From Yersinia bercovieri ATCC 43970 (lineage in GTDB: Bacteria > Pseudomonadota > Gammaproteobacteria > Enterobacterales > Enterobacteriaceae), in the NCBI RefSeq assembly GCF_013282745.1, contig NZ_CP054044.1, positions 2,914,001 to 2,978,000 of the forward strand: 64,000 nucleotides of DNA. The letters run 5' to 3'. Each line of letters starts with the position of its first letter. Position 1 is the stretch's first letter. Positions 1 through 16,728 of this stretch are shown one piece after another. Position numbers and translations under genes: made by a program. The notes beneath the pieces were generated by a model. The model had not been told where the DNA came from and made no database searches. It saw only the letters and a list, made by a program, of their open reading frames with translations.

Positions 1-1978
1 AGTGCTCTTTATGTAGGTTGTTAACTGATTTTATCTGCGTGGTATTGATATTGTAGCGCTCTAATATTCTCTCTAACTCCACCATGTCTTGTATATTTTT
101 TAGTTTCACTGCTGCATAGCGCTGGGCGCTGTTTTTAATGAAAATAAGTAAGGGAGAGGGAGCATCCTCTCGATCTGCCAGATAAAAGTCATCTATCACT
201 TTCAGTACTCTGACTGCTTGTTGGGAACCATTTTCGTTAATATAAAATAGATTGTTCAGTACCTGATCATAGGAGCGTAATCCCATTAAAGTTATAAACG
301 ATTTTGTGACAATAGCATGATACACATTGTTGTTGTCGCTGGGTAATAGTGGGTTCTCTTTACCTGCCACTATTTTTACTCCCCAGGTATTAATGAAATT
401 CTTATCTGCGGTGAGTGAGTTAACTGTACTTAGTTTGTCTTTCTCTTGCTGATTGTGATGGAATACCGAGGTATTAGTTCGCGACATATCAAATGGTCGC
501 CAGCTACTCATGGCGATATTATCAACTCCAATGGCGCTTCTTAATTCATCTTGTAAACTATTTATGACGGTTTTTGATTTCAATTCATCACTTAATGCAA
601 ATGTCACTACATTTTCTTTTTCATAGCCAAAGTTGTCATTTTGCATAAAACGCATCTGTGTCATTATACCTGCCCATAAATATATGATGGTGCCGGCAAT
701 AATAATTTGTATACAAAACATGATGCTATGTATATAGCGCAAGCGAGGTTGTTGAGCATAGAGGCTGATATCATAGGTGTTGTTGGGGAAAATAAAAGCA
801 CACAGAAAAATACAGTGAGCGAGTAAAATAGCAACATAAGTTGCTACTGATGTTATGGTCAATGCGGTTAAGAAATCGCGCTCACCTTGAATGAACATCA
901 ACTCCCTGATGCTATCTGAAAGTTGCGTGAGAGAGATTAAAATAAAAAGAACAAGTAACAGCATAAATGCTGTTTGTAATGTCGCGATAAAGAATGATTC
1001 AGTGAGTAACTGATAATGGGATGCGCCAACTGCTTTCTTTATATAAAAGCTGCTTCTCTTGTTTGTATTGATTACATTGTTGATATTGAAGAAATTCATC
1101 ATAGTCGCAAAAAAAACAAACAAACCTGAGGCGTAGAGAGTATTTAAGTAGGAGACTGAAATTACTGTGCTTATTTCATCTGGCAATGCATTGTCGTAAT
1201 GAATGTCGGTAATGTTTCTGGCGGAAAGTTGAATGAACTCTTCAGGGCTAAAGGGGGCGCCGGGGAGTTGAGGTGCGTGTTGGATAATGTGCGAATTTAA
1301 TTGTTCAGGAGTGGGCTTTATAGCTGATTTCATCGTGATAAAAGCATAGGCGTGTGTATCATACCAGTCATGCCTTTTATCATGGTAACCTTCCATTATC
1401 TCGGAGGAGAAGGCAATAACTGCAGTGGTTTTAAAACGGCTAGATGCGTTGAGTTCAACGACATCTTTAATGATATATTGCTCTTTATCCCCTAATGTAA
1501 TTATCTGCCCTTTAGGGGCATCCAAATGTAGATATTGCTGATTAAATTCAGGGGTGATGATGATTTCATTCTTCGCCAGATAGGGGATTTTTTGTTGATA
1601 TAGGTTTAAGGTGCTGAGAAGATTAGTGCTAACTGCATAGATATCAACATTTGAGTACGCCTTATCATTAACCTGCAAACGGGTAAGTATCCGTACGATA
1701 TAATCCACTTGCTTAATATTTTTATCACTTTTTAGTACTGAAATAAGTGGTAGAGGGACTTGCGCTGATTTAACTTCTTCCCCGTTAGGTAGATTAAATG
1801 TGGTCTCTACCCTATAGATATTATTATAGTTATTATTGTGTTTTTCAATACGATAATCTGTTAGGTAAAGAAGTAATACCAAAAAAGATGATATCAATCC
1901 AATAGCCGTTATTACTATTGCTAACAGGCTTGATAGCGGGCTTAGCTTCAGGTCATTGAAAAATTCACTTGTTAGCAT
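1..1978 (-). CDS. MacB/FtsX-type ABC transporter permease, DarB-like, 3' part outside the window
   Basis: Open from an ATG at 1978 down to base 1 without a stop, so at least 659 residues are visible and the C-terminus is missing. The translation starts MLTSEFFNDLKLSPLSSLL, with a membrane segment near residues 16-36 and then a large extracytoplasmic domain. Three hydrophobic segments follow at about residues 285-390, with the MacB-family signature KKAVGASHYQL after the first (near residue 320). A further membrane pair and a second soluble domain come next. This is the layout of SalY/MacB permeases with two FtsX modules. It lies 190 bases downstream of the WSWSKSF peptide gene on the same strand, as darB follows darA, so export of the mature peptide across the envelope is inferred. 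The partner ATPase and membrane-fusion genes would lie left of base 1. Family assignment is firm; the darobactin role rests on context. Confidence 0.82.
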   Translation of the reverse strand, partial: MLTSEFFNDLKLSPLSSLLAIVITAIGLISSFLVLLLYLTDYRIEKHNNNYNNIYRVETTFNLPNGEEVKSAQVPLPLISVLKSDKNIKQVDYIVRILTRLQVNDKAYSNVDIYAVSTNLLSTLNLYQQKIPYLAKNEIIITPEFNQQYLHLDAPKGQIITLGDKEQYIIKDVVELNASSRFKTTAVIAFSSEIMEGYHDKRHDWYDTHAYAFITMKSAIKPTPEQLNSHIIQHAPQLPGAPFSPEEFIQLSARNITDIHYDNALPDEISTVISVSYLNTLYASGLFVFFATMMNFFNINNVINTNKRSSFYIKKAVGASHYQLLTESFFIATLQTAFMLLLVLFILISLTQLSDSIRELMFIQGERDFLTALTITSVATYVAILLAHCIFLCAFIFPNNTYDISLYAQQPRLRYIHSIMFCIQIIIAGTIIYLWAGIMTQMRFMQNDNFGYEKENVVTFALSDELKSKTVINSLQDELRSAIGVDNIAMSSWRPFDMSRTNTSVFHHNQQEKDKLSTVNSLTADKNFINTWGVKIVAGKENPLLPSDNNNVYHAIVTKSFITLMGLRSYDQVLNNLFYINENGSQQAVRVLKVIDDFYLADREDAPSPLLIFIKNSAQRYAAVKLKNIQDMVELERILERYNINTTQIKSVNNLHKEH

Positions 1979-2106
1979 GGGATTTATCCATTGGCCTTAA
2001 TAAATTTTAGTGATGATGTTATTTATCGTTAATGGTTATACTAATTGTTGTCACCTCATCGAGGTATAATTTTTAAATGGCTTAATATCTCAAAAGAGTG
2101 CTATTA

Positions 2107-2138
2107 AGATTAAGATGCTTATAAAAGCATCTTAATCT
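2107..2138 (-). terminator. Perfect hairpin between peptide precursor and permease genes (attenuator candidate)
   Basis: A 14-base perfect inverted repeat (2107-2120 with 2125-2138, loop of 4) lies 30 bases after the stop of the peptide gene. On the minus strand, the direction of these genes, no U-run follows, so it is a weak or partial terminator at best. On the plus strand a T-rich stretch follows. A hairpin here could stabilise the short precursor mRNA and lower read-through into the exporter genes, as in other RiPP clusters. That role is inferred. Confidence 0.6.
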
Positions 2139-2167
2139 ATTTTTACTAAATGATTTCATTGGCTACT

Positions 2168-2380
2168 TTATTGTTGTGTAAAGCTTTTTGACCAGCTCCA
2201 GGCCGTTATTTCGTTATTGAAATTGTTATTTTTTAGATTTTCAATTTCATGGTCACTAATAGAGAGTAAATTACTTTTAAATGATTGGTCTAACGATTCT
2301 AACTTAGCTTTTAATGCCATTAAGTTACTATTGCTTGTTTTTCTATCTGTGTGGTGTGAAGTATACATATAATTCTCCAT
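2168..2380 (-). CDS. darA: Darobactin-type RiPP precursor peptide (core WSWSKSF)
   Basis: A 70-residue peptide with a polar leader that includes LLSISDHEIENLKN (residues 38-51), then EITA, the core W61-S-W-S-K-S-F67 and a three-residue tail TQQ. The core is encoded at 2180-2200. Darobactin A has the core WNWSKSF, with an ether link between W1 and W3 and a carbon-carbon link between W3 and K5. W1, W3 and K5 are all kept here and only position 2 (N to S) differs. An AAAGGA lies 8 bases before the ATG at 2380. A second ATG at codon 5 has GGAG 7 bases upstream, so a 66-residue form is possible. The next gene on this strand is a MacB-type permease, as in dar clusters. The maturase is not in the window, so production is inferred; the core match and synteny make the family call strong. 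Confidence 0.9.
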   Translation of the reverse strand: MENYMYTSHHTDRKTSNSNLMALKAKLESLDQSFKSNLLSISDHEIENLKNNNFNNEITAWSWSKSFTQQ

Positions 2381-2565
2381 TTAAATAGTTTCCTTTAGAT
2401 GCTGCTCAATATTGGTATCTATTGAGCCAGTTATTTGTAATTCTTTTTCACCATTTTATCAACGTTTTTTTGCAGTGAGTTTTATAATGCTTAATTAATT
2501 TTATTATTGCATTGAATACTTATTGGTTATTAACGTAACGAGAATAACTTTCGACATCCACTATT

Positions 2566-2589
2566 AAATAAAAAGCCCCGCAGGGGCTT
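2566..2589 (-). terminator. Rho-independent terminator of frmA-fghA
   Basis: The stem AAGCCCC (2573-2579) pairs with GGGGCTT (2583-2589) around a 3-base loop. On the minus strand it runs into a T-rich tail (2566-2572). It sits 40 bases after the stop of the S-formylglutathione hydrolase gene and separates that operon from the peptide cluster. Confidence 0.85.
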
Positions 2590-2629
2590 AAGGTATTTAT
2601 ATATAGATAATCCGGTCAGTTACCCCCTG

Positions 2630-3472
2630 TTAGGGGTGTAAATGCTCTGCATGGAAACGCAGATGATCTTCAATAAATGTCGCTATGGTAAAATAGCTAT
2701 GATCATAACCTGGCTGAATACGCAGAGTCAGTGGCCAGTCACGTTGGCGCGCCAGTTCGGCTAATTTTGCTGGTTGCAACTGCTCGGCAAGGAACTGATC
2801 GCCATCGCCTTGATCGACCAACATAGGTAACTGAACTGCTGCATGGGTCAGTAAATGGCAACTATCGTACTCTAGCCATTGGCTCTCATCACGGCCCAGA
2901 TAGGCAGTAAAGGCTTTGCGGCCCCAAGGCACCTGACACGGATTCACTATCGGCGCAAAAGCAGACGCTGACTTATATTGCAGCGGGTTGCGCAGCGCCA
3001 ACATCAGCGCTCCGTGACCACCCATTGAGTGGCCACTAATAGATTGACGTTCACTAACACTAAAGTGCTGGCGGATCAGGGCGGGCAACTCCTGGCTGAT
3101 ATAGTCGTACATCCGAAAATGTGTCGACCAAGGGGCTTGGGTTGCATTCAGATAAAACCCCGCCCCCTGACCCAAGTCATAACCATCGTCATTAGGAACG
3201 TCTTCGCCACGTGGGCTGGTATCGGGCATTACCAACACCAATCCCAGTTCCGCGGCAATTCGCTGTGCACCAGCTTTCAGTGTGAAATTTTCATCATTAC
3301 AGGTTAGCCCCGACAGCCAGTAGAGCACTGGCGGTGGGTTATCATCCCGTGGTGGTGGCAGATAGATGCTGAAAGTCATATTGCAATTCAGGCTGCTGGC
3401 GGCATGGCGATAGCGTTGCTGCCATCCACCAAACATCCGGTGCTCTTCGAGAAGTTCAAGTGACGTATTCAT
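2630..3472 (-). CDS. fghA: S-formylglutathione hydrolase
   Basis: 280 residues, the usual length for this esterase-D/FrmB/YeiG family. It hydrolyses S-formylglutathione to formate and glutathione, the second step of glutathione-dependent formaldehyde removal in the cytoplasm. The nucleophile elbow GHSMGGHGA puts the catalytic serine at residue 149. A GDGDQF acid motif and the histidine of YDHSYF near the C-terminus complete the triad. The gene starts 20 bases after frmA on the same strand, with GGAGG 10 bases before the ATG, so the two enzymes are co-transcribed. The formate it releases is also the substrate of the fdhF pathway in this window, but no direct link is implied. In E. coli the yeiG homologue is next to folE, as here within 4 kb. 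Confidence 0.95.
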
Positions 3473-9193: not shown

Positions 9194-10231
9194 ATGGCCG
9201 CTCTGCATTCATCTGGCAACAGTATTACTATTCGCGATGTGGCCTCACGGGCTGGCGTTTCGTTGGCGACGGTATCGCGAGTTCTCAATAATAGCGCGGC
9301 TATCCGGCCAGAAACCCGTGCCGCAGTGCTGAAAGCGGTGTCTGAACTGGGTTACCGCCCGAATGCCAATGCGCAGGCGCTGGCGACACAAACTAGTGAC
9401 ACGGTTGGTGTGGTGGTGATGGATGTTTCAGATCCCTTTTTTGGTGCCTTGGTGAAAGCGGTAGACACTGTTGCTCAACGGCACCAAAAATACGTGCTGA
9501 TCGGCAATAGTTACCATCAGGCCGACAAAGAGCGTCATGCTATTGAGGTGCTACTCCGTCAGCGGTGTAACTCGTTGGTTGTGCACGCTAAGGCATTGAG
9601 TGACGGCGAGTTAATCGGCTTTTTAGAGCAAGTTCCCGGTATGGTTCTGATTAATCGAATTATTCCTGGGTTTGAGCATCGCTGTGTAGGATTAGACAAT
9701 GTTAGCGGTGCGCAAATGGCGTGCCGGTTGTTGCTCAAACAGGGCCATCAACGTATTGGTTTCCTCGGTTCAAATCACCCTATTGATGATGTCATGCAGC
9801 GCCAGACCGGCTACCGGAATGCACTTGAGGCTGCCGGTATCACTGCTCTCGATAGTTGGCGCGCCTATGGCACGCCAGACCTGGCAGGGGGGGAGCGCGC
9901 TATGATTGATTTGTTGGGGCGCAATTTACAGCTCAGTGCGGTGTTCGCCTATAACGACTCAATGGCTGCTGGCGCATTGGCTGCGCTGAAAGAGAACGGT
10001 ATCAGTGTCCCTGAGCAGTTCTCGCTGGTGGGCTTTGATGACATCCCCATTGCGCGCTATACCAGCCCCAAACTCAGCACAATCCGCTATCCAATTGTTT
10101 CTATGGCAACTTTAGCCACAGAATTGGCTCTGGCCGGTGCAAATCACCCCCTAGATCCTCAGGCGACCTACTGCTTTACACCGACGCTGGTGCCACGGCA
10201 CTCTGTCGCAATTTGTGGCGGCGCTCACTAG
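9194..10231 (+). CDS. galS: LacI-family repressor of the mgl operon, GalS
   Basis: 345 residues. The N-terminal LacI helix-turn-helix ([18 protein letters not shown], about residues 12-29) is followed by a hinge with [11 protein letters not shown] and a periplasmic-binding-like effector domain. It binds galactose or fucose-type inducers and represses mglBAC. Its position directly before mglB, with a Gal operator in front of each gene, supports GalS rather than GalR. AAGG precedes the ATG. Confidence 0.93.
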
Positions 10232-10247
10232 TTAGATATTTATTCTT

Positions 10248-10281
10248 GTGTAACCGTTTTCAATCTGTGAGAAAATTCACA
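10248..10281 (+). promoter_or_regulatory. mgl promoter control sites: Gal operator and perfect CRP site
   Basis: 10248-10263 (GTGTAACCGTTTTCAA) matches the left half and centre of the GalR/GalS operator. 10266-10281 is TGTGA-GAAAAT-TCACA, a perfect CRP palindrome. They overlap the expected mgl promoter region about 300 bases before mglB. The 350-base gap between galS and mglB contains no other gene that I can support. A long leader therefore lies between these sites and the mglB start at 10582. Confidence 0.82.
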
Positions 10282-10581
10282 GATTCTTAACAACGAGCCG
10301 TCTATGCTCTAGCTGTTTTCTACCTGAATGTATCAATATGTCATCGGTTGCCGGATAAAAAAACAGACGGTAGCGGGTTTTAGAATAGCGATTTACAGAC
10401 ATGTGTTCCGCAAACAACTTGTTTGTAAATGACATGGTTTATGACGACTCAGGCGGCTTTTTCGGAGTGGAGTGCGCTCAAGGACGATATATATTCAGTG
10501 TCAGCCGCTTTACGACAGTTTTCTCTCGTTAGGCGATGGTGTTATCACCCTGTACTACCCTACATAAACCCGGAGATACAA

Positions 10582-11574
10582 ATGAATAAGAAGGTTTTCA
10601 CATTAGCAACCTTGGCTGCCAGCATGTTGTTTGGCGCGGCTGCTCAAGCTGATACCCGTATTGGTGTCACCATCTATAAATATGATGACAACTTTATGTC
10701 CGTGGTCCGTAAAGCGATAGAGAAAGATGCTAAAGCATCTCCTGACGTTACCCTACTGATGAATGACTCCCAGAATGATCAATCCAAGCAAAACGATCAA
10801 ATCGACGTATTGTTGGCTAAGGGGGTAAAAGCGCTGGCAATTAACCTGGTTGACCCAGCAGCAGCGCCAGTGGTTATCGATAAAGCCCGCGCAAACGATG
10901 TACCGATTGTGTTTTATAACAAAGAACCTTCACGTAAAGCCTTGGATAGCTATGACAAAGCTTACTATGTGGGCACAGACTCTAAAGAGTCCGGTGTTAT
11001 TCAGGGTGAGCTGATTGCTAAACATTGGCAAGCCAACCCAGCATGGGATCTGAATAAAGACGGTAAAATTCAATTTGTGTTGCTGAAAGGTGAACCGGGT
11101 CATCCAGATGCTGAAGCACGTACCACTTACGTGATTAAGACATTGAATGAAAAAGGTATTCCAACTCAACAATTGCAGTTAGATACCGCAATGTGGGATA
11201 CCGCGCAGGCCAAAGATAAGATGGATGCATGGTTATCTGGCCCTAACGCAAACAAAATCGAAGTGGTTATTGCCAACAATGATGCGATGGCAATGGGTGC
11301 AGTAGAAGCATTGAAAGCACACAATAAAACCAGCGTTCCAGTGTTCGGTGTTGATGCCTTGCCAGAAGCGTTAGCGATGGTGAAATCAGGTCAAATGGCC
11401 GGTACAGTGTTGAATGATGCCAACAATCAGGCCAAAGCGACCTTTGATCTGGCTAAAAACCTGGCTGCCGGTAAACCTGCTGCTGAAGGCACAACCTGGA
11501 AAATCGACAACAAAATCGTACGTATCCCGTATGTAGGCGTCGATAAAGATAACCTGGCTGAATTTACTAAATAA
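10582..11574 (+). CDS. mglB: Periplasmic D-galactose/D-glucose-binding protein
   Basis: 330 residues with a signal peptide [20 protein letters not shown] ending AQA, and a mature protein beginning [13 protein letters not shown]. It delivers galactose to MglAC and, in E. coli, also to the Trg chemoreceptor. The EF-hand-like calcium loop DLNKDGKIQ is present. An in-frame upstream start at 10429 would hide the signal peptide inside the protein. The ATG at 10582 has GGAG 7 bases upstream and gives the normal precursor. Confidence 0.97.
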
Positions 11575-11621
11575 CAGGCGAAACACGATTTACACCCAAG
11601 TATTAAGGGTAGAAAGTCATT

Positions 11622-11687
11622 AACCTTCTAGCCCCGGCACCGAGAATTCGGTACACGGAGCCTGGCACCGGGGCTGAAGGTTTTTTT
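11622..11687 (+). terminator. mglB-mglA intergenic terminator/attenuator
   Basis: A long GC-rich stem starts AACCTTC-T-AGCCCCGG (11622 on) and closes with CCGGGGCTGAAGGTT, with one or two mispairs, and is followed by a run of seven T (11681-11687). It sits 48 bases after mglB and 90 before mglA. A partial terminator here would give far more binding protein than transporter, as is known for mgl operons. Confidence 0.85.
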
Positions 11688-11777
11688 GTTGCATTGATCC
11701 CTATTTTAGAGCGCGCGCTTATTGGTGGGTGGCTATATATCCAGCAAGTCGGTGGCGGTTCTTAGCCAGGTATAATT

Positions 11778-13298
11778 ATGGCCGATATTAATACAGCACA
11801 ACCCCGCGAGTGGTTGCTGGAAATGAGTAATATCAATAAATCATTTCCGGGTGTAAAGGCGTTAGATAACGTAAATCTTAAAGTGCGGCCAAATTCGATC
11901 CATGCCTTAATGGGAGAAAATGGTGCCGGTAAGTCAACGTTATTAAAATGTCTGTTTGGTATCTATAAAAAAGACTCCGGAAGTATTATCTTTCAGGGGC
12001 AAGAAATAGAGTTTAAAAGTTCGAAAGAAGCATTAGAGCATGGTGTCTCTATGGTGCATCAGGAATTAAACCTGGTGTTACAACGTACAGTGATGGACAA
12101 CATGTGGCTGGGCCGCTACCCAACCAAAGGTTTTTTTGTCGATCAAGATAAAATGTACAAAGATACCAAAGCCATCTTCGATGAATTGGATATTGATATT
12201 GATCCTCGTGACAAAGTTGCCACGTTATCAGTATCGCAAATGCAAATGATCGAGATAGCCAAGGCATTTTCTTACAATGCCAAGATCGTCATTATGGATG
12301 AGCCGACCTCTTCATTAACCGAGAAAGAAGTTAATCATCTTTTTACGATTATCCGCAAATTAAAAGAGCGTGGCTGCGGAATTGTTTATATCTCCCACAA
12401 AATGGAAGAGATATTCCAGCTGTGCGACGAAATCACGATATTACGTGATGGTCAGTGGATTGCCACTCAGCCGCTGGAAGGGCTGACCATGGATCAGATA
12501 ATTTCTATGATGGTGGGGCGCTCACTGAGCCAACGTTTTCCTGACCGCCTGAATACACCCGGTGAGGTTATTCTGGAAGTGAAGAATTTGACCTCGCTGC
12601 GCCAACCCTCTATCCGCGATATCTCCTTTGATTTACATAAAGGCGAGATCTTGGGTATTGCCGGGCTGGTGGGAGCAAAACGTACTGATATCGTTGAAAC
12701 CTTATTTGGTATCCGCGAAAAAGTCTCCGGAACCATTAAATTACACGGCAAAAGTATTAATAACCACAGTGCTAATGAAGCCATTAATCATGGATTTGCA
12801 CTGGTGACTGAAGAGCGCCGCTCAACCGGAATTTACGCTTATCTCGATGTGGGTTTTAATTCCCTAATATCTAATATTCGTAACTATAAAAATAAATTTG
12901 GGCTGCTGGATAATACGCGCATGAAGAGCGATACCCAATGGGTTATCGATGCGATGCGAGTAAAAACGCCGGGTCACCGTACCAGTATCGGTTCATTATC
13001 AGGTGGTAATCAGCAGAAAGTAATTATTGGCCGTTGGCTACTGACTCAACCAGAAATATTAATGTTGGATGAGCCGACTCGGGGAATTGATGTCGGTGCG
13101 AAGTTTGAAATCTATCAGTTAATGACTGAACTAGCGAAGAAAAACAAAGGGATCATTATTATCTCCTCTGAAATGCCTGAGCTATTAGGGATCACTGACA
13201 GAATTTTGGTAATGAGTAATGGTCAGGTTGCAGGAATTGTTGAAACCAAACAAACCACGCAAAATGAAATATTACGCCTTGCATCCTTGCATCTCTAA
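11778..13298 (+). CDS. mglA: Galactose/methyl-galactoside ABC transporter ATPase
   Basis: 506 residues with two fused nucleotide-binding domains, the carbohydrate-uptake type. The first has a canonical Walker A (GENGAGKST) and Walker B ending in MDEPTSSL. The second has the degenerate P-loop GLVGAKRTD known in MglA and a signature SGGNQQKV. It energises uptake through MglC, 20 bases downstream. Cytoplasmic, on the inner-membrane face. Confidence 0.97.
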
Positions 13299-13318
13299 TC
13301 TAGTCGAAGGTTCTTATT

Positions 13319-14329
13319 ATGAATGCGTTAAATAAGAAAAGTATGCTCACTTACCTTAAAGAGAGCGGGATTTACGTCGTGTTATTCGTATTGCTGGCAA
13401 TAATTATTGTCAAGGACCCGACATTTTTAAGCCTGATGAACTTAAGTAATATTCTAACCCAATCTTCCGTGCGTATTATTATCGCACTGGGTGTAGCGGG
13501 TCTGATTGTGACTCAAGGGACGGATCTGTCAGCCGGTCGTCAGGTAGGTTTGGCGGCGGTAGTTGCCGCAACCATGCTGCAAGCCATGGACAACGTTAAT
13601 AAAGTTTTCCCTGATTTACAGACTGTGCCTATTCCAATTGTTATCTTAACCGTCTGTCTGATTGGTGCGATTATTGGTCTGATCAACGGTATTATCATCG
13701 CTTATCTGAATGTGACTCCATTTATTACCACATTGGGTACGATGATTATTGTTTACGGTATTAACTCCCTGTATTACGACTTTGTTGGCGCATCACCAAT
13801 TGCTGGTTTTGACCCTGCATTCTCAACCTTTGCGCAAGGATTTTTACGGTTTGGTGATTTCAAACTCTCCTACATTACTTTCTATGCGCTCATTGCTATC
13901 GGCTTTGTTTGGGTATTGTGGAATAAAACTCGCTTTGGCAAAAATATCTTCGCCATCGGCGGCAACCCAGAAGCGGCAAAAGTTTCTGGTGTTAATGTGC
14001 CACTGAACTTAATCATGATTTATGCCTTGTCCGGTGTATTCTATGCATTCGGCGGGATGTTGGAAGCTGGCCGTATTGGTAGTGCGACCAACAACCTCGG
14101 GTTTATGTATGAGCTAGATGCGATCGCGGCTTGTGTGGTAGGCGGGGTCTCCTTTAGTGGTGGTGTCGGTACGGTTATCGGCGTGGTGACTGGGGTTATT
14201 ATCTTTACCGTCATTAACTACGGGCTGACTTATATCGGCGTGAACCCTTACTGGCAATACATTATCAAGGGTGCGATCATTATCTTTGCGGTAGCACTGG
14301 ACTCACTGAAATACGCGAAGAAGAAATAA
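13319..14329 (+). CDS. mglC: Galactose/methyl-galactoside ABC transporter permease
   Basis: 336 residues, mostly hydrophobic with 8-10 helices, of the RbsC/MglC branched family. The stretch GTDLSAGRQVGLAA is the family's conserved loop. It is the third gene of mglBAC and forms the membrane channel with MglA. A terminator follows 33 bases after the stop. Confidence 0.97.
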   Translation: MNALNKKSMLTYLKESGIYVVLFVLLAIIIVKDPTFLSLMNLSNILTQSSVRIIIALGVAGLIVTQGTDLSAGRQVGLAAVVAATMLQAMDNVNKVFPDLQTVPIPIVILTVCLIGAIIGLINGIIIAYLNVTPFITTLGTMIIVYGINSLYYDFVGASPIAGFDPAFSTFAQGFLRFGDFKLSYITFYALIAIGFVWVLWNKTRFGKNIFAIGGNPEAAKVSGVNVPLNLIMIYALSGVFYAFGGMLEAGRIGSATNNLGFMYELDAIAACVVGGVSFSGGVGTVIGVVTGVIIFTVINYGLTYIGVNPYWQYIIKGAIIIFAVALDSLKYAKKK

Positions 14330-14362
14330 TCAGTTATTGGCCGTAAAGCCACGATAAAAATG

Positions 14363-14400
14363 AAAACCAGTCTGGGAATATCCTGACTGGTTTTTACTTT
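14363..14400 (+). terminator. Rho-independent terminator of mglBAC
   Basis: AAAACCAGTC (14363-14372) pairs perfectly with GACTGGTTTT (14385-14394) around a 12-base loop, and the T-rich tail continues to 14400. Confidence 0.88.
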
Positions 14401-14565
14401 TTGATGTAAATGAGAAGTGATTTCAATAGGCGGGGAGATCACTAAATTTTGATTAAATTGTTTATTAACCCAGATCAAGCTTATCGCGGGTTAATATATA
14501 TTTCTTTATTTCAATGCCTTAAAGTATCCACCATCTATTTTTGAGCTTAATGACTTTGGGAATAT

Positions 14566-16728
14566 ATGGATAGCGCAAAAAAACTACCCCGTCCCACATT
14601 GGCTCAGGTTTGGCAAGACACACTACTCACGGTATCGAAAAAATTATTATTACTCCGAGATATCACCGAGTTAGTTAATGAGCTCAGCAAGATCTCTTTT
14701 TCGGTAGTGCGTTTTCAACGTGTCAATTTATTGCTGCTTAATCCGCTGTATAACCAAATAACTCTTTATACCCATGATGATGTCACCGATACAGTCACAG
14801 GGTCGCAAAATATCCTATTTGCTGAAGGCCCGGGCGCTCTGGCATGGCAGCAACAAATACCTTTGCAGAGTGATCATCCGCGTATGCAAAGGGAATTTGC
14901 GTCTGTCTGTAATTTGGGGCCTTATCAGCGGCTACATTCAGGCTGCCATTTTCCCTTGGGCCATGATAATCACTGGTCAGGTTGTGTTGAGTTTATTAAG
15001 ACTGACGACAGTGAGTTCGATGAGCAGGCGATGACCTTTCTGGGATTATTGGCCGATGTAGTCGCTATTGCGGTGGATAATATCGCTGAAATAGATCGGG
15101 CATTTTCTGAACGTGAAAAACTGCGCTTTGAACGGGATCACTACCGGATATTAGTGGATGTCACTAATACGGTTATTTCTAAACTAGAATTGGATGTCTT
15201 AGCGGCCGAGGTTTCGAAAGAGATACACCGCTTTTTCAATATCGATTATATCAGTCTGGCGATATGCGGCAGCCAAAACGATAAAAATAAACTGCATCTC
15301 TTTTCGGCCCGCTACCAAACGGGTAAAACAGTGCAGCATCAGCAAGCCAGGATGGATATCACCGGCACCTTAGCGGGGCAAGTTTTACACAGCCGGGAAT
15401 TATTGCTAGTTAATTTGGCGGATATTTCTCTCTTGGCCCCTGAAGATAAACAATTGGCGAATATGTTGGATGATGGTTTGCAGGTAGTTTGCCTGTTACC
15501 ACTCTTTTTCGGCCATAAGATGCTGGGTATATTAACACTGGCGCAATGTCAGAGTGATATTTTCACCGACAGTAATCTCAAACTGTTACGGCAAATTGCC
15601 GCCCGCATTGCCATTGCTGTGGACAATGCCTTAGCTTATAACGAAATTAGCCGTCTGAAAGACTCACTGGTAAATGAGAATCTCTATCTAACGGATCAGA
15701 TTATTCATAATGAGGAGTTCGGCGAAATAATTGGTCATAGTGCTGGCATTAAAGCGGTGCTGGAACAGGTCGAAATGGTGGCGTCCAGTGATTGCACGGT
15801 ACTGATCCTCGGCGAAACTGGCACCGGTAAAGAGTTAATTGCCCGCGCGATCCATAATTTAAGTCAGCGTAAGAATAAGCGCATGGTGAAAATGAACTGT
15901 GCGGCGATCCCCTCCGGATTAATGGAGAGTGATCTGTTTGGTCATGAAAAGGGGGCATATACCGGTGCGTCATCACAGCGTATTGGCCGATTTGAGATGG
16001 CCGATGGCGGTACACTCTTTCTCGATGAAGTTGGGGATATTCCCCTGGAGCTGCAACCGAAACTCCTGCGGGTATTACAAGAGCGGGAAATAGAGCGTTT
16101 GGGGGGCAGTAAAATTATTCCGGTGGATGTTCGGCTGATTGCAGCAACCAATCGTGACTTAAAATTGATGATGGTCAATCGCGAATATCGCAGTGATCTC
16201 TACTATCGACTCAATGTTTTTCCTATTGTGATCCCCCCCCTTCGCGAGCGGCCAGAAGATATCCCCCTGCTGGTGAAATTTTTCACTAAGAAAATAGCCA
16301 AACGCATGAATCGCGTCATCGATACTATTCCCAGTGAAACATTACGTTTACTGAGTCGTTTACCCTGGCCGGGGAATATTCGCGAACTGGAGAATGTAAT
16401 TGAGCGAGCGGTCATTCTCAGCCGGGGCACAACACTGAATTTGCAGTTACAAGAGTTGGAATATCACTTATCGCCGTTAGAGGTCGCCAAACCGGCAGCG
16501 GAACGGGTCGTTCGTAAAGCGTTGTTACCTGAAAGCGAAGAGCCGGAATTTTCAGAATCTGAACGCGCACGCATTATTCGCGTATTACGTGAGACCAATG
16601 GTGTGGTCGCTGGCGCAAAAGGAGCGGCAATTAAGCTGGGGTTAAAACGCACCACCTTGTTATCTCGTATGCAACGATTAGGAATATCAGTAAAAAGTAT
16701 TGAAGAAGAGGATGGGATAGCTGAGTAA
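14566..16728 (+). CDS. fhlA: Sigma-54-dependent formate-hydrogenlyase activator FhlA
   Basis: 720 residues. Two GAF-type sensor domains occupy about residues 30-180 and 195-355. The AAA+ domain (about 385-625) has Walker A GETGTGKE (416-423) and the sigma-54 contact loop as GAYTGA (463-468) instead of the more usual GAFTGA. A Fis-type helix-turn-helix lies at about 675-710. FhlA binds formate and activates sigma-54 promoters of hyf/hyc, hyp and fdhF genes. Three such promoters are present downstream in this window. The E. coli homologues FhlA (692) and HyfR (670) are slightly shorter; which of the two it equals cannot be settled by eye. There is no response-regulator receiver domain. Confidence 0.92.
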   Translation: MDSAKKLPRPTLAQVWQDTLLTVSKKLLLLRDITELVNELSKISFSVVRFQRVNLLLLNPLYNQITLYTHDDVTDTVTGSQNILFAEGPGALAWQQQIPLQSDHPRMQREFASVCNLGPYQRLHSGCHFPLGHDNHWSGCVEFIKTDDSEFDEQAMTFLGLLADVVAIAVDNIAEIDRAFSEREKLRFERDHYRILVDVTNTVISKLELDVLAAEVSKEIHRFFNIDYISLAICGSQNDKNKLHLFSARYQTGKTVQHQQARMDITGTLAGQVLHSRELLLVNLADISLLAPEDKQLANMLDDGLQVVCLLPLFFGHKMLGILTLAQCQSDIFTDSNLKLLRQIAARIAIAVDNALAYNEISRLKDSLVNENLYLTDQIIHNEEFGEIIGHSAGIKAVLEQVEMVASSDCTVLILGETGTGKELIARAIHNLSQRKNKRMVKMNCAAIPSGLMESDLFGHEKGAYTGASSQRIGRFEMADGGTLFLDEVGDIPLELQPKLLRVLQEREIERLGGSKIIPVDVRLIAATNRDLKLMMVNREYRSDLYYRLNVFPIVIPPLRERPEDIPLLVKFFTKKIAKRMNRVIDTIPSETLRLLSRLPWPGNIRELENVIERAVILSRGTTLNLQLQELEYHLSPLEVAKPAAERVVRKALLPESEEPEFSESERARIIRVLRETNGVVAGAKGAAIKLGLKRTTLLSRMQRLGISVKSIEEEDGIAE

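What the first reader, a model, noticed from the sequence alone, without database searches (positions are those of the whole stretch)
1..2380. Darobactin-type RiPP locus: precursor with core WSWSKSF and a MacB-like exporter
Seen: a 70-residue peptide ends in W-S-W-S-K-S-F plus a short tail, preceded by EITA, and is followed on the same strand by a large MacB/FtsX permease. Known: darobactin A comes from a precursor with core WNWSKSF, the darA gene is followed by exporter genes darB-D and a radical SAM enzyme, and the bicyclic peptide inhibits BamA. Inference: this locus makes a darobactin analogue differing at residue 2.
Basis: partly seen in the sequence, partly recalled or inferred. Interest (0 to 1): 0.95.

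Follow-up and report, generated by a model that had tools for sequence, protein, structure and literature searches.

The report
Darobactin E antibiotic gene cluster
The window begins inside a complete five-gene cluster for darobactin E, a small antibiotic peptide aimed at Gram-negative bacteria whose precursor has already been published from Yersinia; the cluster is known, but its relatives show a conserved RNA hairpin and species that kept only the exporter.

Summary
Window 2168-2380 (minus) encodes DarA with core WSWSKSF; window 2-1978 is the first 659 codons of DarB. Outside the window the operon is complete: darC, darD and the radical SAM/SPASM gene darE follow on the same strand, darE 2.3-3.6 kb left of base 1. 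All five proteins pass NCBIfam's darobactin-specific cut-offs. That paper made darobactin E in E. coli; its MIC was 32 ug/ml in 6 of 8 strains, where darobactin A gave 4-8. Five predicted natural producers, one Y. bercovieri, gave no detectable compound.

Side results: a hairpin between darA and darB in 17 of 18 Yersinia genomes with darA; one Yersinia genome with full-length darBCD but no darA or darE; a BamA segment (residues 416-446) identical in 25 of 25 Yersinia genomes, so no sign there of target-based self-resistance.

The parts
2168..2380 (-). darA, precursor peptide (70 codons from the first ATG; published start is the second ATG, 66 aa)
   Evidence: NF038004, 76.9 bits, cut-off 45; identical to a published Y. 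bercovieri precursor from the second Met
2180..2200 (-). core codons of WSWSKSF (darobactin E); Ser2 codon AGC
2..1978 (-). first 659 of 790 codons of darB, exporter permease; continues 395 bases left of base 1 (L018:12606-14978)
   Evidence: NF038008, 1237 bits, cut-off 700. darC, darD and darE lie wholly outside the window at L018:11347-12600, 10686-11345 and 9358-10668, minus strand
2107..2138 (-). hairpin between darA and darB, 14-bp stem and 4-base loop
   Evidence: pairing kept in relatives
2431..2444 (-). AGAATTACAAATAA, conserved leader motif upstream of darA; role unknown
   Evidence: seen with small variations upstream of darA in 18 of 18 Yersinia darA loci and upstream of the orphan darB of G015
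2573..2589 (-). terminator-like hairpin behind frmB, separating frmAB from darA
   Evidence: four terminator-like sites in window 2000-2700, 0.4 expected

Best explanation
This is the edge-cut view of a complete darobactin operon (darABCDE) on the chromosome of a Yersinia, very probably Y. bercovieri, between frmAB on one side and a DUF924 gene and moeAB on the other. DarA carries the core WSWSKSF. DarE, a radical SAM/SPASM enzyme, installs the Trp1-O-Trp3 ether and the Trp3-Lys5 C-C crosslink; host hydrolases remove leader and follower; DarBCD, a MacB-like tripartite exporter, expels the heptapeptide, which blocks BamA of competing Gram-negative bacteria. Shown here: the genes, their order, their family membership and the identity of the precursor with a published one. 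Taken from published work on relatives: crosslinks, trimming, target. Inferred: export by DarBCD in this strain and the ecological role. Not shown: that this strain makes the peptide.
For: All five proteins are over equivalog cut-offs (bits/cut-off): DarA 76.9/45, DarB 1237/700, DarC 709/450, DarD 429/375, DarE 834/650. Genes B to E are 1-17 bp apart on one strand. DarE is 76-84% identical to eight named Yersinia DarE proteins, with C84, C88 and C91 invariant. The same neighbours flank the operon in named Yersinia loci. A printed Y. bercovieri E-type precursor is identical from the second Met. Darobactin E was made by core exchange in the P. khanii system and tested. DarE alone was reported to form the bicycle, and E. 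coli lysate to release darobactin (PMC9055067 passages).
Against: Published fermentations of five predicted producers, including Y. bercovieri ATCC 43970, gave no congruent activity and no detectable compound. Darobactin E as made heterologously is weak (32 ug/ml in 6 of 8 strains, 64 in one, >64 in one), although an engineered Ser2 derivative in another core background is active (D64). The operon is broken or gone in several sister species, so it is dispensable.
Confidence: 0.96

Rival explanations
1. The operon is intact but silent: AT-rich foreign DNA kept off (for example by H-NS-like silencing), so that it makes little or no darobactin E outside some unknown condition.
For: dar genes are 30-38% G+C against 45-52% for the seven flanking-side genes measured... 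of which frmA, frmB, moeA, moeB, DUF924 and the ABC-F-like gene were measured. Published predicted producers gave no compound in three media.
Against: No silencing was measured; the low G+C is only suggestive. In at least one published predicted producer (Y. aldovae ATCC 35236) the held record has darE split by a frameshift, so silence need not be regulatory there.
Confidence: 0.5
2. The locus is a decaying remnant on its way out, without present use.
For: Among 25 Yersinia genomes, 18 hold darA and 14 hold darE over cut-off; four have darA without an intact darE.
Against: In this genome all five genes are full length without internal stops, and DarE of nine genomes keeps all Cys of the radical SAM motif.
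Confidence: 0.07
3. A different radical SAM peptide (dynobactin- or DarW-type) rather than a darobactin.
For: The maturase is related to both.
Against: DynA model 197.7 bits against a cut-off of 450; DarW 507.5 against 650; DarE 834 against 650.
Confidence: 0.01

Closest known systems
Darobactin E (DAR E, WSWSKSF); Y. bercovieri precursor in PMC8694152 Table 1
   Same: Precursor identical from the second Met; same core and TQQ follower.
Darobactin A operon of Photorhabdus khanii
   Same: darABCDE with radical SAM DarE and DarBCD exporter.
   Different: Ser for Asn at core position 2; follower TQQ, not QEI; divergent leader.
Darobactins C and D (WSWSRSF, WNWSRSF), also from Yersinia
   Same: Same genus and operon type; WNWSRSF cores in 5 of 18 Yersinia darA genes here.
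   Different: Arg at the crosslinked position 5; here Lys.
Dynobactin and DarW-type maturases
   Same: Related radical SAM/SPASM enzymes.
   Different: Both models score below their cut-offs.

Membership tests
Darobactin (daropeptide) operon | DarA precursor with a W-x-W-x-(K/R)-x-F core near its C-terminus | tested here: met
   WSWSKSF; NF038004 76.9 bits, cut-off 45
Darobactin (daropeptide) operon | DarE radical SAM/SPASM maturase with CxxxCxxC | tested here: met
   NF038005 834 bits, cut-off 650; C84, C88, C91 invariant in 9 of 9 aligned
Darobactin (daropeptide) operon | DarB, DarC, DarD exporter genes, order A-B-C-D-E | tested here: met
Darobactin (daropeptide) operon | Bicyclic product with ether and C-C crosslinks | not testable with these tools
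   Published for relatives (PMC9055067 passages); MS/MS of heterologous DAR E reported in PMC8694152
Darobactin (daropeptide) operon | Product acts on Gram-negative bacteria through BamA | not testable with these tools
   Published MICs of DAR E in eight strains: 32 in six, 64 in one, >64 in one
Dynobactin operon | DynA maturase over cut-off | tested here: not met
   197.7 bits, cut-off 450
DarW-type maturase | DarW model over cut-off | tested here: not met
   507.5 bits, cut-off 650

The most novel reading that the evidence does not exclude
DarBCD is kept as a stand-alone darobactin-immunity module in bacteria that no longer make the peptide: non-producing kin keep the pump to live beside producers. 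One Yersinia genome (G015) lacks darA and darE but keeps darB, darC and darD at full length behind the old dar leader motif; a second genus (G164) carries darBCD without a recognisable darA or darE. Because the BamA segment examined is identical in all 25 Yersinia genomes, protection would have to come from export or another route. Added to this, the hairpin after darA is an old element that sets the ratio of precursor to pump.
Probability: 0.4. Interest if true: 0.45.

Novelty: already known. Interest (0 to 1): 0.2.

Why it matters
Darobactins hit BamA, a surface target of Gram-negative bacteria that no marketed antibiotic addresses (PMC10726357 passage), so correct naming of a natural analogue is useful. 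But this analogue, its precursor sequence, its heterologous production and its MICs are in print. What could still matter: how producers protect themselves (the BamA segment examined does not differ between Yersinia genomes with and without the operon), whether orphan DarBCD is an immunity gene set, and why predicted Yersinia producers yield no compound.

Tried and rejected
Rejected: dynobactin- or DarW-type maturase (below cut-off). Rejected: a permease of an unrelated cluster with its own ATPase (the ATPase next to it is DarD). Rejected: chance ORF.

Led nowhere: Rfam has no match in L018:9000-16500 at E up to 0.5. The sigma-70-type scan found two promoter-like sites in window 2000-2700, fewer than the 4.0 expected by chance, and none upstream of darA. 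A two-sequence alignment added nothing. dN/dS for darBCD is unreliable because synonymous sites are near saturation (pS 0.585-0.742). A paper search for the hairpin listed 15 of 5,508 papers and no darobactin paper among those 15, so it says little about whether the hairpin is in print.

Considered: that WSWSKSF is a new core. It is not.

Full report
Observation. The window starts inside an operon on the minus strand. Window 2168-2380 is a 70-codon ORF ending EITA-WSWSKSF-TQQ, and window 2-1978 holds the first 659 codons of a large permease.

Completing the operon. The window is G000:C1:2914001-2978000. Fetching the DNA to its left (L018) gives on the minus strand darA (L018:15168-15380), darB (12606-14978, 790 aa), darC (11347-12600, 417 aa), darD (10686-11345, 219 aa) and darE (9358-10668, 436 aa). 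NCBIfam scores against curated cut-offs: DarA 76.9/45, DarB 1237/700, DarC 709/450, DarD 429/375, DarE 834/650 bits. The dynobactin (197.7/450) and DarW (507.5/650) maturase models fall short. DarE has CNLRCTYC; its cysteines are invariant in nine aligned DarE proteins, the other eight being 76-84% identical.

Host. A scan of named genomes with DarE found nine loci, all Yersinia; the window's own species may be left out by that tool. In the eight named loci that reach it, frmA-frmB precede darA; moeA-moeB follow darE in all nine, and a DUF924 gene lies between in eight of nine, L025 being the exception. The species is inferred, not named by a tool: Y. bercovieri, from the identical published precursor.

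Already known. PMC8694152 (sections 5, 6 and 7 read; other passages) names WSWSKSF darobactin E and prints for Y. bercovieri a precursor identical to this one from the second Met. The same table prints a Y. bercovieri A-type precursor that differs only by Asn2, so A and E are alleles within that species, one base apart if the codons are AAC and AGC (inference; only AGC was seen here). The paper made DAR E in E. coli by core exchange (under 10% of the DAR A signal; about 1 mg isolated) and found MICs of 32 in six of eight strains, 64 in one and >64 in one. Five predicted producers gave no congruent activity and no detectable compound. PMC10726357 (passages) also cites DE (WSWSKSF) as rather inactive, while its engineered Ser2 derivative D64 is active. 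The original 2019 discovery paper was not seen.

Core survey. Of 25 Yersinia genomes, 18 hold darA and 14 hold DarE over cut-off. Cores: WNWSKSF in 12 of 18, WNWSRSF in 5, WSWSKSF in this genome alone. DarE is over cut-off in 12 of 13 Lys5 genomes and 2 of 5 Arg5 genomes (one-sided hypergeometric 0.044, worked by hand, no correction for relatedness). A protein search returned 26 relatives of DarA; I read 13 of the 26: two WSWSKSF (one a shorter copy of the other), ten WNWSKSF, one ending before the core.

Decay and the orphan exporter. Pieces were located separately. G001 (contig length equal to Y. aldovae ATCC 35236, L027) has darE in two frames; this is a draft and may hold a sequencing error. 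G007 keeps darE residues 1-69 and darB in two pieces; G010 keeps darE 350-434 and darB in four pieces; G017 has darA, darB pieces at contig ends, darD in two pieces and no darE; G002 keeps darB 1-84 only; G014 shows no dar match; G023 has darE 226-435 at a contig end. In G008 and G016, frmB lies about 500 bp from DUF924 with no dar match between. G015 is different: darB (791 aa), darC (420) and darD (219) are full length and over cut-off (1170/700, 711/450, 436/375 bits), while darA and darE give no hit better than E 4.9 in its 15 kb stretch. The dar leader motif stands directly upstream of its darB. Outside Yersinia, DarB is over cut-off in 9 genomes of a family sample of 295 that also gave 3 Yersinia. 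Of those nine, seven have DarE over cut-off, G046 has broken darE pieces and G164 has none. G164 has DarB 959/700, DarC 591/450 and DarD just under cut-off (368.5/375), with ada next to darD. Against the immunity reading: one genome per species; loss could be recent; dN/dS (G015 pairs 0.036-0.2) rests on near-saturated synonymous sites. In favour: PMC11559228 (passages) reports darobactin MIC rising from 1.6 to >16 ug/ml in its engineered strain and then names the darBCD cluster in its concern about spread.

Self-protection. BamA residues 416-446, which include the FGIGYG segment, are identical in all 25 Yersinia genomes, with or without dar. That this is the strand darobactin binds is recalled, not tested; no E. 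coli BamA was compared here. So no difference in that segment marks producers.

The hairpin. Between darA and darB a stem of 9-15 pairs occurs in 17 of 18 genomes with darA; G022 lacks it. On the 17 (15 distinct; G022 left out) 93.9% of cells pair (shuffled mean 79.1, 0/500), 31 cells change on both sides (11.2, 0/500) and the covariation score is 0.518 (0.254, 0/500). Two measures do not exceed the shuffles: pairs with a two-sided change, 7 (123/500), and further pair types, 11 (500/500). Sliding the partners drops pairing to 22-49%. The stretches were chosen because they fold, and most two-sided changes separate two sequence types, so few independent events are involved. No T-run follows on the coding strand; the scan lists it as terminator-like only on the other strand. 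I think it stabilises darA mRNA or thins transcription into darB (inference).

Verdict. A real, complete and already published kind of operon with an already published core. Novelty: already known. The side results on the hairpin and the orphan exporters are modest and preliminary.

Noticed in passing
L187:4135-4320 (+), genome G028: A 61-aa precursor-like ORF ending LAWNWSFRF stands directly before darB in an operon with DarE over cut-off (719.6/650). Phe replaces the Lys/Arg of the crosslinked position 5. NF038004 does not detect it; the string WNWSFRF was in no held paper.
   Followed up: partly
L180, L182-L185: Natural core variants outside Yersinia: WNWSKAF (G258) and WNWSKGF (G046, G190, G273, G308). 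WNWSKGF was in no held paper; WNWSKAF occurs once, in PMC10107326.
   Followed up: partly
L129:3515-7850 (-), genome G015: Full-length darBCD without darA and darE.
   Followed up: partly
L186:4373-8668 (-), genome G164: darBCD without recognisable darA or darE in another genus; DarD just under cut-off.
   Followed up: partly
L027:8001-9298 and G001:C208: darE of Y. aldovae ATCC 35236, a published 'silent' predicted producer, is split into two frames in the held draft. It may be a sequencing error.
   Followed up: partly
L129: The flanking DUF924 protein of G015 is 95% identical to the window's genome, but its DarB only 58%, with dN no lower than to Y. massiliensis, Y. similis and Y. aldovae DarB: dar alleles do not follow their flanks.
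   Followed up: no
window 2404-2427 (-): A second small hairpin (GCTCAATA...TATTGAGC) just upstream of darA.
   Followed up: no
L129:2073-3401 (+): An MFS transporter gene (NF007710, 809/550 bits) lies between DUF924 and darD in G015; several other species have a gap of about 1.7 kb there that may hold it, while in the window's genome DUF924 and darE are about 115 bp apart.
   Followed up: partly
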